This document shows positions 1,225-8,938 of a stretch of 17,534 nucleotides of DNA, piece after piece (position 1 is the first letter of the stretch; each line of letters starts with the position of its first letter). The notes under the pieces were generated by a model, which saw nothing but the letters and a program-made list of their open reading frames with translations, was not told the DNA's origin and did not search any database. Source of the DNA: Cladosporium sp. IMV 00045 (Eukaryota; Ascomycota; Dothideomycetes; Cladosporiales; Cladosporiaceae); contig MSJI02000165.1 of NCBI GenBank assembly GCA_001931905.2, forward strand, positions 1-17,534, read 5' to 3'. The translations under genes and the position numbers were made by a program.

Positions 1225-2400
1225 GAGGGAAAAGAGAGGGTTGTGAAGGGAGGGAAGGGAAGAAGCAGTAATGTCTTTTTTTAACCACCATTGGATGTCA
1301 GGAAGGGGAAATGGGCGAGGTCAAGGCTTGATTGGATGTTTTCTGGAGTTGGCTTGGTGGGAGCAGGCATTGGAAAAAGAAAGGAAGGGAGAGAGGATCA
1401 GCCTTCTCTTCTCTCTCTTCTTTTCTCCGTTTTGGAGGCTTTTTCTTCTCTGCTTCTTTTGGATATACCGCAGCAGCACCTTTCTTGACGGGCGAACCTT
1501 ACGAGGCGTCACTTTATATACCTTATCTTTCTCGTTCTTTCTTTTACCTTTCTTTTCCAGCGAGAAGAGACACTTTTTGGATAAATTCAAGTACGAGGGG
1601 TCTTTTTGGATCAGATCAATCAAGATTGATATACCGTATTCGATTCTGTCAAGACCTTCCTGTATCAACCAACTGTGCATCTAGCTGGCTTGCTGTGGAC
1701 TTCGTTCGGTTCATGTTCGAGGGCTTCTGGATGTTGCCGGTGCACTGGCGCGGCTGTATGCTCTGGTTTGCATTTCGAGTTTCGTCTTCGATAAGGGAGG
1801 CTAAGAGGCGGGTGTATCCACCATACACACGTTTCAGAAGGAAGCATACTCGGGCGGGGCCTTGATGTTACCTTAGGTTACCTAAGCAAAGCAGCGCCAA
1901 GCGAAGTTTACTCGGACTTCATCTCTGGTTTCCTTGCAGGTTATCTTGTCTTTGTTCATTACATGTAGGCAACGATAGTCTTCTTTCTGCATTGCATTGC
2001 CTTGCGTGTGTAATGATGCATCATCGTTGAGTCTTTGATGGTACCGGTCGTTGGCGCCACTGCTTTGTAAGCCGATGCTTGCCAGTCACATCTGCTCGCG
2101 CTCCATCAAGCGTTCAGAAGTCCAACAGCAAGGACGAGCGAACACCGACAACAGCAGGATCACAGTAGGTGGATATACCGGTCGCATTGGAGGTTTGGGT
2201 AGAGAAACAATGCCATACAATCTACATAAACTAACTATATACTACCGGCACAGCAGTCACCCAACGCCCCAACCCCCCTCACAAACACCTCAACACCTCC
2301 AGGACTCCCTCACAAACACCCCAACACCTTCAAAACCAAGCTGACACCAATCTCCTCCCATCCCTTCACAAGAACCCCCATCCCTCCACAAGATCCAAAC
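1225..2400. other. Intergenic region, 3' side of the Spa2-like gene and of the convergent snoRNA host transcript
   Basis: No convincing coding region. The first 300-400 bases are purine/pyrimidine-biased and fit a 3' UTR of the Spa2-like gene. An imperfect palindrome CTTAGGT-t-ACCTAAG sits at 1872-1886. Small tandem duplications begin near 2278. The minus-strand transcript described below must end somewhere between about 2000 and 2460; no terminator can be placed from sequence alone. Confidence 0.5.
2278..2396. repeat. Further short tandem duplications (periods 31 and 20)
   Basis: CTCACAAACACCYCAACACCT occurs at 2278-2298 and 2309-2329. CCCATCCCTYCACAAGA occurs twice near 2358 and 2378. This C- and A-rich tract carries at least two independent small duplications and no open frame of interest. 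Confidence 0.75.
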
Positions 2401-2402
2401 CA

Positions 2403-2496
2403 TCCTGCATCGAATGCTTCCCGAGTGACCGCTGGCCTTTGCAAACATGTCCTGCATCTAACGCTTCCCAGGTGACCGCCAGGCCCTCACCAAAAA
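2403..2496. repeat. Two-copy 47-bp tandem duplication
   Basis: The units at 2403-2449 and 2450-2496 share TCCTGCATC, GCTTCCC and GTGACCGC with scattered differences. It follows the 73-bp duplication in the host transcript's direction. Confidence 0.75.
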
Positions 2497-2605
2497 ACAC
2501 CGACCACCCGTGGGCCTAGCAGTCACCAATACCGGCGTTGCGTTTGCCAGCTCTTGCCGCGCAGCCCGCCTCTTTCCCAGAGCAGCTTGCTGGATGTGCT
2601 GGGAG

Positions 2606-2751
2606 CCAGGATGGTATTGCTTGGACCGGCTCAAGGTCTGGTGTTGTTGACGACCTCGCGCTGGCGATGAGAGGAATGCCAGTATCGCATTGCTTGGACT
2701 GGTTCGCGGCTTGGTGTTGTCGGCAAGCTTGCGCTGGTACAGAGAGGAGTA
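2606..2751 (-). repeat. Two-copy 73-bp tandem duplication in the last host exon
   Basis: Units 2606-2678 and 2679-2751 have equal length and share blocks such as ATTGCTTGGAC and TTGGTGTTGT (plus-strand reading), with many substitutions between them. The duplication is therefore old. It lies in E15 of the host transcript. Confidence 0.8.
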
Positions 2752-2879
2752 CCAGGCGGGCTGCATGCGGAAAGGCGGAAGAGGCTGCTGGAACCCTGGA
2801 TCGAGGTGTGTCTGTTTGTTCGAAAGCGTCAGCGACAGTTCAAGGCCTCAATGTTGCACGACTCCAAGTGGTACGAGTT

Positions 2880-2956
2880 TCAATCAGAGGTCTGTTGTTG
2901 GGTTCTCGACATTGCCCTAAGGCTGTGGTAGCGAAACCGGATGTCTCATCTTGTAG
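2880..2956 (-). ncRNA. Intronic box C/D snoRNA candidate 9 (intron 14)
   Basis: C box AAGATGA (same variant as candidate 5) at 2952-2946 and D box CTGA at 2887-2884, in the intron 3000-2812 (donor GTCAGT, acceptor AACAG). D ends 72 nt before the acceptor. An internal stretch is complementary to UAGCGAAACC, a conserved LSU rRNA segment, but it is not directly next to a good D' box. Upstream of D eight bases match AGGUCUGU of 18S rRNA, but D+5 would then fall on C rather than on a methylated base I know. Confidence 0.6.
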
Positions 2957-3118
2957 GTTGAGAGTTGATGACGGGTGCGGAGGGGGATCTTCTCACTGAC
3001 CTTGCAAGTAGGGTTGTCCCAGCTGAAGGGCGTATGGCGACATGTCCTAAGTCACACGCAGTCAGCACTGATCCAAGACTTTGAAGCGAAGTAGTAGAGC
3101 GCGCAGCATGAAGTCGAG

Positions 3119-3197
3119 AGTTTCAGACTTGGTAATGGTAATTCTCACGGTTGTCACCAGCGAGTGGTAAGCAGAGCTAAAAGAAATCATCATGGAT
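3119..3197 (-). ncRNA. Intronic box C/D snoRNA candidate 8 (intron 13)
   Basis: C box ATGATGA 3193-3187 lies 38 nt from the donor GTTAGC at 3231. D box CTGA 3126-3123 ends 76 nt from the acceptor at 3047. The guide ends ATTACCAAG-T, complementary to CUUGGUAAU. That resembles the 18S rRNA segment around yeast Gm1572 (snR57 target), with G at D+5. I recall many Pezizomycotina having a different base inside this segment, so the target is tentative. No clear terminal stem. Confidence 0.68.
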
Positions 3198-3353
3198 GGT
3201 GTGGTGTGCTGGAAGAGAGAGTCTTGCTAACCTTGGAGTTTGCGCGCAGCTTGGTGTTTGCGCGGATGATGACGAAGGTGATGCGTGTCCTGGAGAGCCT
3301 TGATGTCAGCGCTGGTTCTCAAGGGCGATGCGATGCTCATGAGGGTTGTTGGA

Positions 3354-3440
3354 TTCCGTTCAGAGTGGGGTTTTGGTATCATAGATATTCGCCCGCATGG
3401 CCAAGCGAATTCAGGAAGACCTTGTTAGATCCTCATGGAA
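3354..3440 (-). ncRNA. Intronic box C/D snoRNA candidate 7 (intron 12)
   Basis: All four boxes are present: C ATGAGGA 3436-3430, D' CTGA 3414-3411, C' ATGATAC 3382-3376, D CTGA 3363-3360. TTCC (3440-3437) pairs with GGAA (3357-3354). D ends 70 nt before the acceptor at 3290. Upstream of D', 12 bases pair with GAAGACCCUGUU of LSU rRNA except for one A-C mismatch, and D'+5 then marks the A of GAAGACC. The donor at 3472 is GCAAGT, a GC-AG intron chosen because it puts the C box 36 nt inside, as in the neighbours. Confidence 0.72.
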
Positions 3441-3649
3441 GGGGTGAGGGAGGAGGGTAGGGAGAGACTTGCGATGAGCTTCCAGGGTCTTTCTCTACCG
3501 CGCGAAGGTTGCGGCTCGGAAACAGAGGATTGCACGGAGCAATATCGATTGGTCGCCATGTCGAGGACGGTCTTGCACCTGTGAAGCACGTTTGTCAGCA
3601 GTCTGGTCGAGAACAAGTAACGTTATGTGCAGAGGCCGTGAAAGAAGGT

Positions 3650-3733
3650 CATCTCAGGTGAGTGTGAGCTGTACTCCTGTCTTTCTTCAGAGAAAATCAG
3701 AAGATTAGCAAGACAGATGAAATCATCATTGCT
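3650..3733 (-). ncRNA. Intronic box C/D snoRNA candidate 6 (intron 11), possible U6 guide
   Basis: C box ATGATGA 3729-3723, D' box CTGA 3700-3697, D box CTGA 3657-3654, inside the intron 3774-3579 (donor GTAATC). D ends 75 nt before the acceptor. The ten bases directly upstream of D' (3710-3701) are complementary to AAGAUUAGCA of U6 snRNA. D+5 would fall on a U of GAUUAG, which is not one of the U6 methylation sites I know. The same U6 element occurs in the two preceding introns, which suggests copies of one ancestral unit. Confidence 0.7.
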
Positions 3734-3900
3734 GACCAGGCATGGGTAGGCGACTGAGGAGGCGTTAAGATTACCTTTTAAGGACTTGTGGGCATGGCCC
3801 TGGAGCCGCTTGCGTTTGTCGGTTTGTTGGAAAGTTGGCACCTGCGAATGAGTACGGTCAGCGGACTGCTCGACGATGAAGCTCAGTAATGTCCTTCCAA

Positions 3901-4074
3901 TGGCCAACAACAGCAGTAGTTCAGACGTGCTGGCTGCTGTGAACCTAAGGAGCTACTCAAAAGCAACAACAGCCTCTGCGGTTTTGTATCAGCGCGGCCT
4001 CGTGGGCGAACACCCGACAAAGGCAGACTCGAAAGATTAGCATGGAGTGTTCATCATGACTGTTGCGTTGGCCA
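3901..4074 (-). ncRNA. C/D-like module 1 in intron 10: stem-closed, U6-complementary element
   Basis: The arms 4074-4060 and 3913-3901 (TGGCCAAC-gc-AACAG against CTGTTGTTGGCCA) give 13 bp with a 2-nt bulge. C box ATGATGA is at 4057-4051, two bases inside the stem. D box CTGA at 3924-3921 ends 79 nt before the acceptor at 3842. The 13 bases at 4045-4033 are complementary to AAGAUUAGCAUGG of U6 snRNA. An internal hairpin, GGCTGTTGT with ACAGCAGCC (imperfect), and a C-like CTGATAC near 3990 match parts of module 2, so the two are diverged copies. Another CTGA at 3992-3989 could be the D box of a shorter RNA. The donor GTAAAG at 4109 is weak. Confidence 0.5.
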
Positions 4075-4233
4075 CTGATGAAACGGACAAGGGAATGGGG
4101 AGGCTTTACGAATGATGGTTCGAGAGCCCGTGGGCATCGCTTCGTGTAGCTTGTGGTTGTCGGTTCGTGGAATCGGGAAGTTGCACCTGCGAGAGTCTGA
4201 TCAGCGGACTGGTCAAAATGATGAGAGGGTCAG

Positions 4234-4532
4234 TTATGTCCTCCAGTGGCCAACACAACATTGACACTCAGTATGTGACTGCTGCCCGTAAGCAAAAAAG
4301 GCAGCAGCCCTGAAACTTGTTTTCTTATCATGCGCTGCCTTTGTAGATCGGACACCCCTCAAGTTTGGATCGGACACCCCTCAAGTTTGGATCGGACACC
4401 CCTCTGGATCGGACACCCCTCAGAATCGGACACCCCTCAGTTTTGTTGTCAAAGACAACGGCAGCTCGATAGATTAGCATGTTTCATAACATCATACTGT
4501 TGTGTTGGCCACTGGTGAAACGGAGGACATAA
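4234..4532 (-). ncRNA. C/D-like module 2 in intron 9: long stem, U6-complementary element, tandem repeat in its loop
   Basis: The arms 4532-4498 and 4260-4234 form an inverted repeat: all 27 nt of the 3' arm can pair, including an 18-nt perfect stretch, with one 8-nt bulge in the 5' arm. Just inside are a C-box-like ATGATGT (4495-4489) and a D box CTGA (4271-4268). D ends 81 nt from the acceptor at 4187. After the C box, 4481-4471 is complementary to AGAUUAGCAUG of U6 snRNA. The loop also contains five copies of a short repeat (4347-4440), a second C-like box ATGATAA (4331-4325), and an 8-bp hairpin CTGCTGCC/GGCAGCAG (4279-4307). It may be one long RNA with internal boxes, or an outer stem around a shorter snoRNA from 4331 to 4268. 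It is homologous to module 1. Confidence 0.5.
4347..4440 (+). repeat. Five-copy tandem repeat, core ATCGGACACCCCTC
   Basis: The 14-base core occurs without change at 4347, 4369, 4391, 4408 and 4425. The period is 22 for the first three copies, with spacer AAGTTTGG, and 17 for the last two, with shortened spacers. On the minus strand it reads GAGGGGTGTCCGAT and lies inside the loop of module 2. Module 1 lacks the array but has a related GTGTTCG at the matching place. Confidence 0.95.
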
Positions 4533-4694
4533 AGGAGTGGGGAGACGTTCAGATTGGGTCACCGTAGGATGCTCGTGGAGAGCTGTTGGTTGTTGCGAGG
4601 TCGTTCGAAGTCGGCAGGACGGTCGAGGTATCTGGAGCGACTTGCTGTCAGCGCTGGACTTGAAGATGATCAGGCGGAATGAAAGGATGCGGCG

Positions 4695-4793
4695 GAAGCA
4701 TATCAGGCGACATTGTGGGCTTTGTCGGTTGTTCTCCCTCAGCGACCCTCGGGTCTCGGTTGGAGGAGTGATAGGGGATTCATCTTTTGCTTC
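4695..4793 (-). ncRNA. Intronic box C/D snoRNA candidate 5 (intron 8)
   Basis: C box AAGATGA (one change from consensus) at 4786-4780 and D box CTGA at 4706-4703. They are closed by a perfect 6-bp terminal stem, GAAGCA (4793-4788) with TGCTTC (4700-4695). The D box ends 71 nt before the acceptor of the intron 4827-4632. Nine bases directly upstream of D (4715-4707) are complementary to GCGACAUUG. I recall this as part of the conserved LSU segment AUAGCGACAUUGC, and D+5 would point to the C of GCGAC. Confidence 0.75.
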
Positions 4794-4911
4794 GGTGGAA
4801 AGTGTGGCTGAGGTGAGAACGACGAACCTTGAGAATTGCCTGTTTGCGAGAAAGTGTCAGTCATTGTACTAATGATCTCGCAGATGAAAGGAGTAGATGC
4901 GTTTCGAGAGG

Positions 4912-5043
4912 GATGTCAGAAGGCAAGCTCATGCTGTTTTTTCTTCCACGAAGGGATAGCCACTGCCGGCCCTGGGGCACCAGACTTACAGGCTGCCCAG
5001 CAGCTCGGAGTGAAGTATTCGAAGGCAGGGTGTCATCATCCTC
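4912..5043 (-). ncRNA. Intronic box C/D snoRNA candidate 4 (intron 7), long
   Basis: C box ATGATGA 5039-5033 lies 35 nt from the donor, and D box CTGA 4919-4916 ends 76 nt from the acceptor of intron 5074-4840. The distance from C to D is about 124 nt, longer than in the neighbours. Pairing next to the boxes is weak (GAGG with CCTC, asymmetric). I found no convincing rRNA target. The position in the intron follows the same rule as the others, which is the main support. Confidence 0.55.
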
Positions 5044-5192
5044 AAGGATGTTTGTGAAAAGGGGGAATACTGACCTGAAGGCGCTTTGCTGTGGTGTCTT
5101 GGAAGGGCGTCTTTGTTGTTGGGAGTCAAGCCCTAAACGGAGCGAGTGTCAGTGTGAGCTTGCAGAAGTGTGGGCGAAACGTTTGCGATGTG

Positions 5193-5269
5193 TCTCCATC
5201 AGGTTAAGGTAGCCAAGAGCTTTCTCAAAGAGATGAGGTCGTTGGGTTTCTCATCATGGGTTGGGGAGA
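5193..5269 (-). ncRNA. Intronic box C/D snoRNA candidate 3, LSU rRNA guide (intron 6)
   Basis: C box ATGATGA 5257-5251 and D box CTGA 5202-5199, with outer stem TCTCC (5269-5265) and GGAGA (5197-5193). The D box ends 66 nt before the acceptor at 5133. The guide at 5216-5204 is complementary over 13 nt to UUAAGGUAGCCAA, a near-universal large-subunit rRNA segment next to helix 69. Counting five from the D box predicts 2'-O-methylation of the second A of CUUAAGG. This may be the position served by yeast snR13 (adjacent methylated adenosines), but I have not verified that. It is the best-supported guide in the locus. The intron starts with GCAAGT, a GC-AG donor. Confidence 0.85.
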
Positions 5270-5403
5270 TGTGGAGGGAGGTGTCTGGACTTGCCTTCGT
5301 GTGCTTGTTGTGTGCTTGTTGGCGGCTGAGTGTTGGTTGCACTGCGCGGAATGTTAGCTGATGTCTTCTCAGGTTGCGATGCAGAAAGTGCGACATGGAT
5401 GTG

Positions 5404-5496
5404 CTGATCAGAAGTGTGGTCCTCGGGATTGAGATCCCATCAACAGGGTGTGTTCAGTTGATGTGTGTGAATACGAGGGTGTGTCTCGTCATGGAT
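5404..5496 (-). ncRNA. Intronic box C/D snoRNA candidate 2 (intron 5)
   Basis: All four boxes can be seen in the intron 5527-5342: C ATGACGA 5492-5486, D' CTGA 5457-5454, C' around TGATG 5442-5438, D CTGA 5411-5408. The D box ends 66 nt before the acceptor. Upstream of D' the ten bases at 5474-5465 are complementary to GUGUGAAUAC, and upstream of D eight bases are complementary to AAGUGUGG. As I remember it, both lie close together in the conserved 3' half of large-subunit rRNA. The D' match does not reach the D' box directly, so its modification site is not defined. Confidence 0.75.
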
Positions 5497-5740
5497 GAGG
5501 GGAATGAGAGGAGCGACGCGAACATACCTTGATCGCTGCTGGCAGCGACGGTGTTCAAGGCAGAGGGGACTTGGATATGTGTTTGAATGACATACCCAGA
5601 CACTTGCTGGCGCGCAGAGGTGGTTGACTGGACGGGTCGGCGCATGCGCTTCCTCTTGGGTGAGTTCTGGAAGCGACAGTACTGCAAGGCAAAGGTCAGT
5701 GAGGTGTTCTCTTTCGCTTTGTTTGCAGAGGTAAGTGAGG

Positions 5741-5851
5741 TTGATCCGAAGATCAGATAGCATGGCTTGTTCGACACCGACCGGCGAGTTGCACGATCCT
5801 TTTTTCGAAGTTAAGGATGAGAAGAATGGTATCATCATCGAAGAAGATCAA
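5741..5851 (-). ncRNA. Intronic box C/D snoRNA candidate 1 (intron 4)
   Basis: C box ATGATGA at 5838-5832 and D box CTGA at 5756-5753, inside the intron 5876-5682. An outer stem TTGATC (5851-5846) with GATCAA (5746-5741) brings the two boxes together. The D box ends 71 nt before the acceptor. The bases upstream of D (GCCATGC and neighbours) can pair with several rRNA or U6 segments, but none of these fits the D+5 rule well, so the target is open. Confidence 0.72.
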
Positions 5852-6771
5852 TGAGGGTTGGGGAAGAGGTACTTACCATGTTGTGAGAGGTGCTGAAGGT
5901 CAACGCGCTTGCGCGGGCAAGCTTGGTGGGCGCCGCAGGTGGAGGTGCGCGTTTGCAAGCTCACAATGCAAAACCTGGGTGAGAATGTTAGCTTTTTTGT
6001 TGACAGACAGGGAGGAGTGAGCATATGCTAACCTTGCACAGGCATTGCTCGCCGGAGTTGTAGTGGTGTTTGGCCGAGGTCGCGGTGGATGCGACGTGCG
6101 CTGCCGCCGCGGCGTGACGTGAAGTGCGGCAACAGGTGCCTGTTGCGACCGGCGAAAAGCACATAACTACAAGTGTCAGCGAATATTCTCGGTCGAGGTG
6201 ATACAGTCGAGCAAGATGTACTCGCGTCGATGCAGGATGCGTGCTCACTGCCATTGTTGCTGTTGCGTGGATCGATCAGTCTTGCTGAGCGCAAGACCTC
6301 ACTTCACCGACGCCACCAGCCACTCGGCGGATCGCTGTCAGAGAGAGAAACTTACCTTTTGAGGTTGACGAGCCTGTTGAGATGCTTCGCAACGTGCTTG
6401 ACAACCGCCTGGTGTTAGTTTGGGGTGTTGGAGTTGTTGCGTTGTTGGATGGTGCTGAGAGTTGGTTGTGTGGTGAGCGAGGCAGGACTTCACAACAAAG
6501 CTTCGAATTGATTGTGGGTCGACGACTGCGCCACACTAGCGCCGTTTGCACTCACATGAGGAAGGCACGCCTTCCCTAGGTGACGTGCTACCACAACAAT
6601 GCTTCTGCATCGCTTCAGCAACGCGGAGGTAATCGGAGATTGCCTGGCATGAGTACGAATCGATTCTGCACCCATTGGATCGTTGCAAGTAGCGTATCTG
6701 TTGCGGAGGAAGTTCATGAGATCGAGCACTGCAATCACAACGAGAAAGCGAAGGTCGAAAGGCTTTGGCAT

Positions 6772-8162
6772 CGATGTATCTTCGTCAGGGTTCGGGTATC
6801 GAGGACATTGTAGCTATTGGATCTATGCTAGATCGATTTAGACCAGTCTCTATCAACCACTTCATGAGGACAACCAGACTGTCTATCTGTTTCCCAAGCC
6901 ATAGCTAATTCAGAATCAATCTACCACTCAAAGCATCATTAAATCAACACCACTACACCGACGCACTGACTTGGCGCACGAGACAAAGCTCCTCTACAAT
7001 TCAATCATCTGCACGCATCAATATGCACACCCGAACTCGACGACTATGCGCTTCGATACCACAACATCACAAATCAAAACGCTCCCACCAAGAATCACCG
7101 AAGTCCTGATCATAGTCGCGACGACCTCCTTTCTAACCGCACCTTGAAAGCGACGCTGCCGATCTCGTCGCGCACGCGACAGGTCCAGCAGCGATGTGAT
7201 CTGCCTCTCCGATACTTCCCACAAGCGCCTGCGAGCATTGCGAGACGAATGCGAATGAGAAGGGAATGGAGATCAACTCAAGAGCAGACACCTTTCATCG
7301 ATTACTTCTCCTGTAGCGGGCTGGGTAGTGAGCAAAAGTCCGAGGAAGAGCGCGAGGCCGTCAAGGAACCCATTGATTCGGACAAGTCCTTCGAGGGATC
7401 ACGTACGGATTCAAGAAAAGCATTGATGTCGTCGCGTTTACACTACCCTTGTTGAAGTACATCCGGAGAGCATGAGGTTTGGCAGCACGTACTGGCAGCA
7501 ACTGAGACATGGAACATCTCTGTCGCGAACGAACCACCTACATGTTGGGAATCATGCCATGCAGCCTTGCTCAACGATCGAACGAGAAGAGGAGAGTGGA
7601 AGAGCTAGATAACTTATCCTATGATTGAGGACAGCGTGCGAGAAAAAGAGAAGGGAGGGGATACATTGACACGGCGAGCGAAAGAACAACACAGAATGGG
7701 TTGGGAGATAGCACAGTACCATGGCCGAAACATTGTCATAAAGGATACCGATCTACTGCTACTGTTCTATGCACTTTGATATCTGGTATGATACACGAAT
7801 CACCGGAGAACGCGTCGGTCTTGATGGTCTCCAGGGTGTATGAGGAAAAAGGGCATACACGGTCAAATGAGAAGGATATTGAACTACACAAAGAAGTCCA
7901 AATCAAGCACCTCATTGTCAAACAAGTCATCATGTTTGCACTTGTCTTGCGCCGGAATTCGTTGCGACAGAGGCGCGCTTTTGCTGGCTAAATAGCGCCA
8001 TCACAGCAAGGTCAGATCGTGAAGCGGTAAAATCCTGTGGACAAGAACCGTAGATGGGGAATGTTATACAAGTAGAAAGAAAGGGATAGAGTGATTTGAT
8101 CAATTAATTCACATAAACCTGGATTACTATCCTCCAATTGACACGAATAACGCGTAGATGCA
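6772..8162. other. Gene-poor region upstream of the snoRNA host gene
   Basis: The host promoter should lie in the first few hundred bases, read on the minus strand; no TATA-like or other element stands out. On the plus strand a stop-free frame runs from about 6970 to 7455 (about 160 codons, ending LMSSRLHYPC), but it has no ATG near its start and no recognisable domain. I do not call it a gene. No C/D box pairs with the host's spacing, tRNA or known RNA gene were found here. Confidence 0.5.
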
Positions 8163-8546
8163 CTATCTTTCTATGCTGTTCTCACTTCTAGCCTCAGCAT
8201 CGTGCGCTCTCGCTCTCAAACCACCAGCCGGCGGTTCGTCCTTGTCTTGTCTCTGCGCCTCTGGCTCCTGTGTAGGTTGGCTGGCGGGACCAGAGGATTC
8301 TGCTACTGGTGGGTCGGTGATGTTCTCTGATTTCGACTGAGCAGCTTGGGTTTTGGCCCTCAGGTCACCAGATTCTGGATCGTCGATGTTGAGCTGTTGA
8401 GCAAGCGGTTCTTGTGATGTATGTTTGGTATCAGTGGGAGACTGGAATCGGGTGTATGAAGAGATGGCGTTGGCTTGAATGCGGACGTGAGAAATTCGTA
8501 GAAATCTCGAAGACCTCCCAATCGAAGTGAGATTTCGCAACATCAT
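8163..8546 (-). CDS. Small hypothetical protein with mitochondrial-type presequence and internal repeat
   Basis: 127 residues. The start is the first of two adjacent ATG codons (8546 and 8543). The first 35 or so residues (MMLRNLTSIGRSSRFLRISH and on) are rich in Arg and Ser and lack acidic residues, as in mitochondrial targeting sequences. The remainder is polar and probably disordered. A motif appears twice, GDLRAKTQAAQSKSEN and GGLRARAHDAEARSEN, each after a Pro-containing acidic or polar linker, which suggests an internal duplication. I do not recognise the family and assign no function. It is divergent from the peptidase gene, with 392 bp between the start codons. The repeat and presequence argue that it is real; absence of homology information is the main doubt. 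Confidence 0.6.
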   Translation of the reverse strand: MMLRNLTSIGRSSRFLRISHVRIQANAISSYTRFQSPTDTKHTSQEPLAQQLNIDDPESGDLRAKTQAAQSKSENITDPPVAESSGPASQPTQEPEAQRQDKDEPPAGGLRARAHDAEARSENSIER

Positions 8547-8938
8547 TTTGGACAGCGGCAAAGATATTTTTGATTGGTATGTAGTTTAATAGTTGATATC
8601 AGTGACAAGAGGTGAGGTTGGATATCGTCCCCGCTTTGCCCAAGTCGACAAGCCGACGGACTATACTCGGATTGGCAGGCGACGATAACGAGATGGGCTG
8701 AGCCGATAGGAATCGTCATCATACAGAGCAAGCTCGTGATAGCCAGAGTCTTGCTTGGGTTGCTTGAAGATACAAGACTACTGCCGTTGCCGGGCGGTAC
8801 CTTTGTCTACGCGTGACTTGTAATAATTTGCGGTATTCTCAGCTGTAGGTGTTGTTTGGCTTATTTTTTACTTGCATACCGTATATGGCACGTGTGAAGC
8901 GTAGCCAACGCCAGGACGGCGAGAAAGCAACCAGGATA
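8547..8938. promoter_or_regulatory. Divergent intergenic region between the small protein and the M28 peptidase
   Basis: It must contain the promoters of both flanking genes. I see no distinct box that I could assign to a regulator. In-frame upstream ATG codons for the peptidase occur nearer its start (for example 8886) but in weaker context. Confidence 0.5.

What the first reader, a model, noticed from the sequence alone, without database searches (positions are those of the whole stretch)
2458..6771. Intron-encoded snoRNA cluster in one host transcript: up to eleven C/D elements in consecutive introns
From the minus strand, introns 4 to 14 each contain a C-like and a D box, several with terminal stems and D'/C' boxes. 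The exons are tiny (12 to 154 nt) while the introns carry the conserved signals, which inverts a normal gene. Clusters of intronic snoRNAs are known in filamentous fungi, but one this large that also holds U6-directed and stem-closed modules would be worth describing. The exon chain is my inference.
Basis: partly seen in the sequence, partly recalled or inferred. Interest (0 to 1): 0.88.

Follow-up and report, generated by a model that had tools for sequence, protein, structure and literature searches.

The report
Fungal gene hosting eleven intronic snoRNAs
A stretch of fungal DNA looks like a non-coding gene whose job is to carry about eleven small guide RNAs, one in each of eleven consecutive introns; such genes are known, but this one is large, does not match the described fungal sets it was tested against, and three of its RNAs look aimed at the splicing RNA U6.

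Summary
On the minus strand, eleven consecutive modelled introns (window 5876-2812) each hold one box C and one box D, the D box 50-67 nt upstream of the branch point; shuffled introns would give about 0.2 such introns of 11. Internal exons are 12-154 nt without codon periodicity, and all three frames are open for long runs, so the host looks non-coding. Best reading: a UHG/GAS5-like snoRNA host gene of an unnamed Mycosphaerellales-type fungus.

Such genes are known in filamentous fungi. This one is larger than any fungal cluster I saw in print and does not match clusters I-III in guides. S3 has a 13-nt exact match to 25S rRNA (A2271). S6, S7 and S8 carry 11, 13 and 12 nt exact complements of U6; none of 1000 shuffled sets has three of 10 nt or more, though S6 and S7 are tandem duplicates and so not independent. 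They are closed by 18- and 16-bp stems. Seven of 11 have no convincing target. Rfam reaches no threshold.

Splicing, expression and conservation could not be tested. I rate it a new member of a known kind with unusual parts.

The parts
2230..6520 (-). Proposed non-coding host transcript (ends arbitrary); 13 modelled introns plus a possible one at 6409-6555
   Evidence: splice signals; exon chain
5753..5838 (-). S1: C/D element, C ATGATGA to D CTGA; flanking stem including TTGATC/GATCAA; D guide holds a 9-nt complement of U6 (not significant)
5682..5876 (-). intron carrying S1
5408..5492 (-). S2: C/D element, C ATGACGA, D' CTGA at 5457, C'-like GTTGATG (by eye); no convincing target
5342..5527 (-). 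intron carrying S2
5199..5257 (-). S3: C/D element; D guide TTGGCTACCTTAA pairs 13 nt with 25S rRNA, N+5 = A2271 (yeast numbering)
5133..5294 (-). GC-AG intron carrying S3
4916..5039 (-). S4: long C/D element (124 nt), no convincing target
4840..5074 (-). intron carrying S4
4703..4786 (-). S5: C/D element, C AAGATGA, no convincing target
4632..4827 (-). intron carrying S5
4268..4495 (-). S6: 228-nt C/D element with 11-nt U6 complement CATGCTAATCT one nt before D'-like TCGA, internal tandem repeat and internal hairpin
4243..4515 (-). S6 closing stem: arms 4498-4515 and 4243-4260, 18 bp, 100% complementary
   Evidence: fold (z -2.83)
4187..4561 (-). intron carrying S6 (donor GTGACC weak; 3' end set by similarity to unit 7)
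3921..4057 (-). S7: 137-nt C/D element, tandem duplicate of S6; 13-nt U6 complement CCATGCTAATCTT directly before D'-like TCGA; 16-bp closing stem with a bulge
3842..4109 (-). intron carrying S7
3654..3729 (-). S8: C/D element, D' CTGA at 3700; 12-nt U6 complement TGCTAATCTTCT, of which the last 2 nt lie in the D' box
3579..3774 (-). intron carrying S8
3360..3436 (-). S9: C/D element, C ATGAGGA, D' CTGA at 3414; no convincing target (12 of 13 nt to 25S with the mismatch at N+5)
3290..3472 (-). GC-AG intron carrying S9
3123..3193 (-). S10: C/D element; weak Rfam similarity to snR61 (27.9 bits, gathering 45)
3047..3231 (-). intron carrying S10
2884..2952 (-). S11: C/D element, C AAGATGA, no convincing target
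2812..3000 (-). intron carrying S11

Best explanation
This is a non-coding snoRNA host gene on the minus strand of an unnamed Mycosphaerellales-type fungus. It would be transcribed as one precursor and spliced (inferred). Each of eleven debranched introns would be trimmed by exonucleases down to a box C/D RNA protected by the core C/D proteins (inferred from the known pathway). The spliced exons are by-product. The snoRNAs then guide 2'-O-methylation: S3 of 25S rRNA at A2271 (predicted from a 13-nt exact match), and S6, S7 and S8 of the U6 snRNA core next to the AGC triad (sequence match shown, methylation inferred). The N+5 rule points to U6 U45 in S. pombe numbering, a site not known to me as methylated, so the U6 contact may be a methylation guide or a chaperone contact. 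The set grew at least once by tandem duplication of a whole intron-exon unit (units 6 and 7). The long closing stems of S6 and S7 would bring together the ends of the two longest introns and mark the snoRNA ends (inferred).
For: Eleven of 11 introns hold C+D at fixed spacing, expected 0.20. D box to branch point is 50-67 nt in 11 of 11. Outside the locus the minus strand gives 0 rows in the same scan. Exons: codon-position asymmetry 0.056, equal to shuffles (p 0.49), against 0.22 for an equally long piece of the photolyase gene of this window; open runs of 292, 320 and 261 codons in the three frames. S3 guide: 0 of 60 shuffles reach its score, the only one of 18 guides tested to do so. U6: longest exact complements 11, 13 and 12 nt in S6-S8, reached by 0.6%, 0% and 0.4% of 1000 shuffles of each; 0 of 1000 shuffled sets of eleven have three elements with 10 nt or more, 0.4% have two. 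S6 and S7 introns align far above shuffles (36 versus null maximum 11). Closing stem of S6: 18 bp perfect. The same architecture is described for Euascomycete clusters (PMC3596301, parts 1-3 of 6 read; PMC2780460, sections 3 part 1 and 8, and passages).
Against: No Rfam family reaches its gathering score in the window. Only S3 of 18 guides beats all its shuffles; the U6 guides are reached by 5%, 7% and 12% of shuffles in that mismatch-tolerant test over all targets (the boxes of S6 and S7 were set 1 nt off there). In the looser scan, over boxes with up to one mismatch, three shuffled target sets gave maxima up to 14.6 in other elements (9.3-10 in S3, whose match scores 13.0). An 11-nt exact rRNA complement also occurs in S10 out of register, so matches of that length to the long rRNAs are not rare. 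S6 and S7 are duplicates, hence not independent, and their U6 stretch (16 of 17) is not much more alike than their other parts (79-96%). Seven of 11 elements have no convincing target. Flanking stems reach p 0.01 in 3 of 11. The S6 donor is weak. Expression and related loci could not be examined. Spacing limits were set after inspection.
Confidence: 0.87

Rival explanations
1. A protein-coding gene with many short exons whose introns happen to host snoRNAs.
For: The spliced chain has a 292-aa ATG frame crossing all eleven snoRNA introns; 0 of 300 base-shuffles have an ORF as long, and with per-exon base-shuffles the longest open run has p 0.004.
Against: All three frames are open, for 292, 320 and 261 codons; dinucleotide shuffles reach the longest run in 5.2% of cases; codon-position asymmetry equals shuffles (p 0.49), against 0.22 for photolyase. 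I did not search this frame for homologues.
Confidence: 0.06
2. Only some of the eleven (those with exact C boxes, strong stems or guides: S1, S3, S4, S6, S7, S8, S10) make stable snoRNAs; the rest are decayed copies or chance boxes in ordinary introns.
For: Five of 11 C boxes carry a mismatch; 7 of 11 elements lack a convincing target; stems reach p 0.01 in only 3 of 11.
Against: The five mismatched ones keep the same D-to-branch-point spacing; such an arrangement is found in only 0.0075-0.03 of shuffles of each of their introns.
Confidence: 0.3
3. Several separate transcripts (for example a 5' gene up to about 5975 and a snoRNA gene from about 5880), not one host.
For: The two introns upstream of S1 carry no C/D element found by the scan and are differently built (58 and 189 nt; no structure signal in the 189-nt one, z -0.12). 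No promoter or transcript-end analysis was made.
Against: The eleven snoRNA introns are contiguous and share exon size and signals; no exon between them is longer than 154 nt.
Confidence: 0.2

Closest known systems
Fungal polycistronic intronic snoRNA clusters I-III (snR72-78; snR57-55-61; snR41-70-51), described in PMC3596301, and the six N. crassa clusters of PMC2780460
   Same: Mostly one C/D snoRNA per intron, non-coding host, small or absent internal exons, Euascomycetes, short open frames
   Different: Eleven snoRNAs rather than up to seven; of 56 yeast rRNA sites tested the best ideal-guide matches are 11 nt (18S A796, S7) and 10 nt (25S U2729, S2, out of register; 5 of 30 shuffled sets also reach 10), so the composition of clusters I-III is not seen. 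Clusters IV-VI were not tested as such
GAS5 / UHG (SNHG) host genes of animals
   Same: Non-coding multi-intron host with one C/D snoRNA in nearly every intron; GAS5 carries ten (PMC10743478, passages read)
   Different: Fungal, short introns (162-375 nt), no evidence of shared snoRNAs
N. crassa CD11 / yeast and S. pombe snR53 (18S Am793/796 and U6)
   Same: By its listed targets (PMC2780460 table) CD11 must pair with the same stretches of 18S and U6; S7 matches U6 for 13 and 18S for 11 nt. I did not see the CD11 sequence
   Different: Three elements instead of one; the match favours U6 over 18S; the D'-like box lies further 3', so N+5 shifts by two nucleotides (my geometry); S6 and S7 are 228 and 137 nt from C to D with long stems (CD11 is 79 nt)
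snR61 / SNORD38 family (Rfam RF00476)
   Same: S10 aligns over the whole model with C, D and part of the guide (27.9 bits, E 0.32)
   Different: Below the gathering score of 45; its 11-nt 25S complement is shifted relative to A1133 and no proper D' box follows it

Membership tests
Box C/D snoRNA (S1-S11) | C box RUGAUGA and D box CUGA in correct order | tested here: met
   D CTGA in 11 of 11; C exact in 6 of 11, one mismatch in 5 of 11
Box C/D snoRNA (S1-S11) | Terminal or external stem closing the C/D pair | tested here: inconclusive
   p 0.01 or less in 3 of 11 (S1 0.010; S6 and S7 0 of 500); S3, S5, S10 p 0.06-0.09; the other 5 of 11 weaker
Box C/D snoRNA (S1-S11) | 10-21 nt antisense to rRNA or snRNA immediately upstream of D or D' | tested here: inconclusive
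   S3 clear (13 nt, 0 of 60 shuffles); S6-S8 to U6 (11, 13, 12 nt exact); 7 of 11 no convincing match; the finder missed the true site of 1 of 2 positive controls, so absence is weak evidence
Box C/D snoRNA (S1-S11) | Stable RNA bound by fibrillarin, Nop56, Nop58 and Snu13 | not testable with these tools
   no RNA data
Intronic snoRNA host gene (UHG/GAS5-like) | One snoRNA per intron at a near-constant distance from the branch point | tested here: met
   11 of 11 modelled introns, 50-67 nt
Intronic snoRNA host gene (UHG/GAS5-like) | Exons without protein-coding signal | tested here: met
   no codon periodicity; three frames open
Intronic snoRNA host gene (UHG/GAS5-like) | Spliced, and payload more conserved than exons | not testable with these tools
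   no relatives' DNA or RNA reachable (genome search gave no answer)
Fungal clusters I-III | Guides for the sites of snR72-78, snR55/57/61, snR41/51/70 | tested here: not met
   Ideal 13-nt guides for 56 recalled yeast sites: the only match of 10 nt or more to a cluster I-III site is 25S U2729 in S2, out of register and not beyond shuffles
snR61 (RF00476), for S10 | Score at or above the Rfam gathering threshold | tested here: not met
   27.9 bits against 45

The most novel reading that the evidence does not exclude
A lineage-specific fungal host gene that carries mostly orphan C/D RNAs, grows by tandem duplication of intron-exon units, and devotes three neighbouring introns to guides against the catalytic core of U6 snRNA, two of them in a new architecture: a 137-228 nt C/D RNA sealed by a 16-18 bp stem with an internal hairpin and, in one, an expandable tandem repeat. 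That would be a spliceosome-modifying locus made by splicing itself.
Probability: 0.3. Interest if true: 0.65.

Novelty: new member of a known kind. Interest (0 to 1): 0.45.

Why it matters
Fungal snoRNA lists rest, as far as I saw, on yeasts and a few Pezizomycotina. A cluster of eleven with no Rfam family at threshold suggests that much of the C/D repertoire of Dothideomycetes is unlisted. If the U6 guides are real, U6 modification next to the AGC triad in fungi becomes directly testable, and the duplicated unit 6/7 gives a case of snoRNA birth by intron-exon duplication inside a host gene.

Tried and rejected
Rfam at gathering scores found nothing in the window; E-value mode gave 6 weak matches in 2200-7200, one of them on the plus strand, none at threshold, and none in 5900-8200. 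H/ACA or C/D content of the 189-nt intron 6355-6167: no structure signal (z -0.12) and no CTGA 45-70 nt upstream of its branch point (list). Coding host: rejected on codon periodicity and three-frame openness. The apparent S6 match to 18S around A420 lies in one arm of an internal hairpin and is not taken as a guide. The S6 D guide to 25S U2186 (3% of shuffles) and the S4 D guide to 25S G2660 (5%) are not taken as targets either. General tandem origin of all eleven introns: among the 55 pairs only S6-S7 reached the local score of 15 that I followed up. Related loci in viral contigs by the photolyase and M28 peptidase proteins: pattern matches (2 and 6) but no relative. The paper 'The fungal snoRNAome' (recalled; DOI tried) is not held. 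Term searches in PMC2467506 and PMC5738166 gave 0 for snoRNA. PMC12508059 (outline) and PMC10324135 (passages) were seen and not used.
Full report
What was checked. The finding says that introns 4 to 14 of a minus-strand transcript each hold a C-like and a D box. I located branch points, acceptors and donors and C and D boxes on the minus strand and modelled eleven introns: 5876-5682 (S1), 5527-5342 (S2), 5294-5133 (S3), 5074-4840 (S4), 4827-4632 (S5), 4561-4187 (S6), 4109-3842 (S7), 3774-3579 (S8), 3472-3290 (S9), 3231-3047 (S10), 3000-2812 (S11). Branch points are CTGAC in nine, CTAAC in one (S2) and CTGAT in one (S6). Two introns (S3, S9) start with GC. The S6 donor (GTGACC) is weak, and the S6 3' end was fixed by its similarity to unit 7; one search used slightly different ends for S6 and S8, corrected.

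More than chance. In all eleven introns CTGA lies 50-67 nt upstream of the branch-point motif (mean 57.6, sd 4.6), and a C box (exact in 6, one mismatch in 5) lies 35-66 nt from the donor. With intron interiors shuffled keeping dinucleotides (2000 shuffles each), 0.0075-0.03 of shuffles per intron have such an arrangement, 0.20 introns expected in total against 11 of 11 seen. I set the limits after looking, so this overstates the significance. The same rule run over the whole window gave 11 rows on the minus strand, which are 9 of the 11 elements and nothing outside the locus, and 4 rows in 3 places on the plus strand; its donor pattern was widened to include the donors of S7 and S8, and missed those of S4 and S6. 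Flanking stems reach p 0.01 or less in S1, S6 and S7 only.

Host. Exons between the snoRNA introns are 12-154 nt. The spliced chain has a 292-aa ATG frame, which at first looks coding (0 of 300 base shuffles). I read it as composition: the three frames have open runs of 292, 320 and 261 codons, dinucleotide shuffles reach the longest in 5.2%, and codon-position asymmetry is 0.056, the same as shuffles (p 0.49), while an equally long piece of the photolyase gene in the same window scores 0.22. The frame is poor in T (0.17) and hence in stops. It was not searched for homologues.

Organism. Neighbouring genes are an M28/TFR-type peptidase, a photolyase, a forkhead protein and a VBS_C3G9 protein. 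Among the 120 best photolyase relatives listed (of 2300), the closest are unnamed environmental proteins at up to 86% identity; the best named are 74-75% (Meristemomyces, Oleoguttula, Baudoinia). Meristemomyces and Baudoinia are Teratosphaeriaceae, order Mycosphaerellales, class Dothideomycetes, so I place the host there by inference.

Targets. I compared guides with recalled yeast rRNA, an S. pombe-type U6 and other recalled snRNAs. Of 18 guides tested, one (S3, D box) beat all 60 of its shuffles: TTGGCTACCTTAA pairs 13 nt with 25S, N+5 at A2271; the same 13 nt occur in the fetched LSU fragment L001. In the looser scan three shuffled target sets gave maxima up to 14.6 in other elements but 9.3-10 in S3. 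A2271 is not among the yeast sites I recall, and the N. crassa table has no entry at 2233, the corresponding position by my offset of 38. S6, S7 and S8 contain 11, 13 and 12 nt exact complements of U6; the last 2 nt of S8's lie in its D' box. The next longest are 10 nt to 25S and 18S in S6, 11 nt to 18S in S7 and 8 nt to U5 and 25S in S8. Dinucleotide shuffles of each element reach these U6 lengths in 0.6%, 0% and 0.4% of 1000 cases; 0 of 1000 shuffled sets of eleven have three elements with 10 nt or more and 0.4% have two; 3.6% have at least one of 11 nt or more. In the mismatch-tolerant guide test over all targets the three are reached by 5%, 7% and 12% of shuffles. With D'-like TCGA, TCGA and CTGA, N+5 is U45 in S. 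pombe numbering in all three (hand count on the recalled U6). By its listed targets the N. crassa CD11 / snR53 guide pairs with the same stretches of 18S and U6; S7 also matches 18S A796 for 11 nt, above the maximum of 10 in 30 shuffled sets. The remaining seven elements have no convincing target. Because my finder recovered the true site for only one of two positive controls, I call them unassigned, not proven orphans.

S6 and S7. The two introns and the exons after them are tandem duplicates. The 5' arm is 21 of 23 identical, the U6-antisense plus D' 16 of 17, the next exon 49 of 62; all eight parts compared lie between 79 and 96% in a gap-friendly alignment, so the U6 stretch does not stand out strongly. 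S6 is sealed by an 18-bp perfect stem and no one of 200 shuffles folds as well (z -2.83); S7 by 16 bp with a 2-nt bulge, with 4 of 200 shuffles folding as well (z -2.01). Between D' and the internal hairpin, S6 carries five copies of a unit of about 15 nt, spaced 17-22 nt. With S6 and S7, S8 shares the U6 antisense; its intron as a whole does not align to theirs above the score followed up.

Comparison. Luo et al. 2013 (PMC3596301; parts 1-3 of 6 read) describe three snoRNA clusters, the largest of seven, fully intronic in Euascomycetes, in poorly conserved non-coding hosts with small or lost exons. Liu et al. 2009 (PMC2780460; Background part 1 of 2, Discussion and passages read) describe six clusters in N. 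crassa, two with alternatively spliced UHG-like hosts. Candida has five shared clusters with 19 snoRNAs in all (PMC5033589, passages). GAS5 has ten C/D snoRNAs (PMC10743478, passages). The present locus works like these, with a different and larger payload. Of 56 yeast rRNA sites, no cluster I-III site is matched by a guide in register. I saw no fungal host with eleven in the listings of eight literature searches; those cover open-licence papers only, and I opened only the papers named here and in Tried and rejected.

Limits. Splicing, expression, conservation and methylation are therefore inferred.

Noticed in passing
window 4346-4445: Five copies of a unit beginning GATCGGACACCCCTC (plus strand), one of them with a changed first base, inside S6 between its D'-like box and internal hairpin; no such array was reported in the duplicate S7.
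   Followed up: partly
window 2605-2756: Two 73-bp tandem copies (74% identical) in the proposed terminal exon.
   Followed up: no
window 2276-2332 and 2403-2479: Further short direct repeats just downstream of the cluster.
   Followed up: no
window 6520-2230, minus strand, spliced: The exon chain is poor in stops in all three frames at once (runs of 292, 320, 261 codons), which might matter for escape from nonsense-mediated decay.
   Followed up: partly
window 5294 and 3472: Two of the eleven snoRNA introns use GC rather than GT donors.
   Followed up: no
window 8163-8585, minus strand: 140-aa open frame without a Pfam match upstream of the host gene.
   Followed up: no
L001 1-3101: A eukaryotic large-subunit rRNA fragment filed under a bacterial metagenome assembly (Gammaproteobacteria isolate DT_94): probably contamination.
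   Followed up: no
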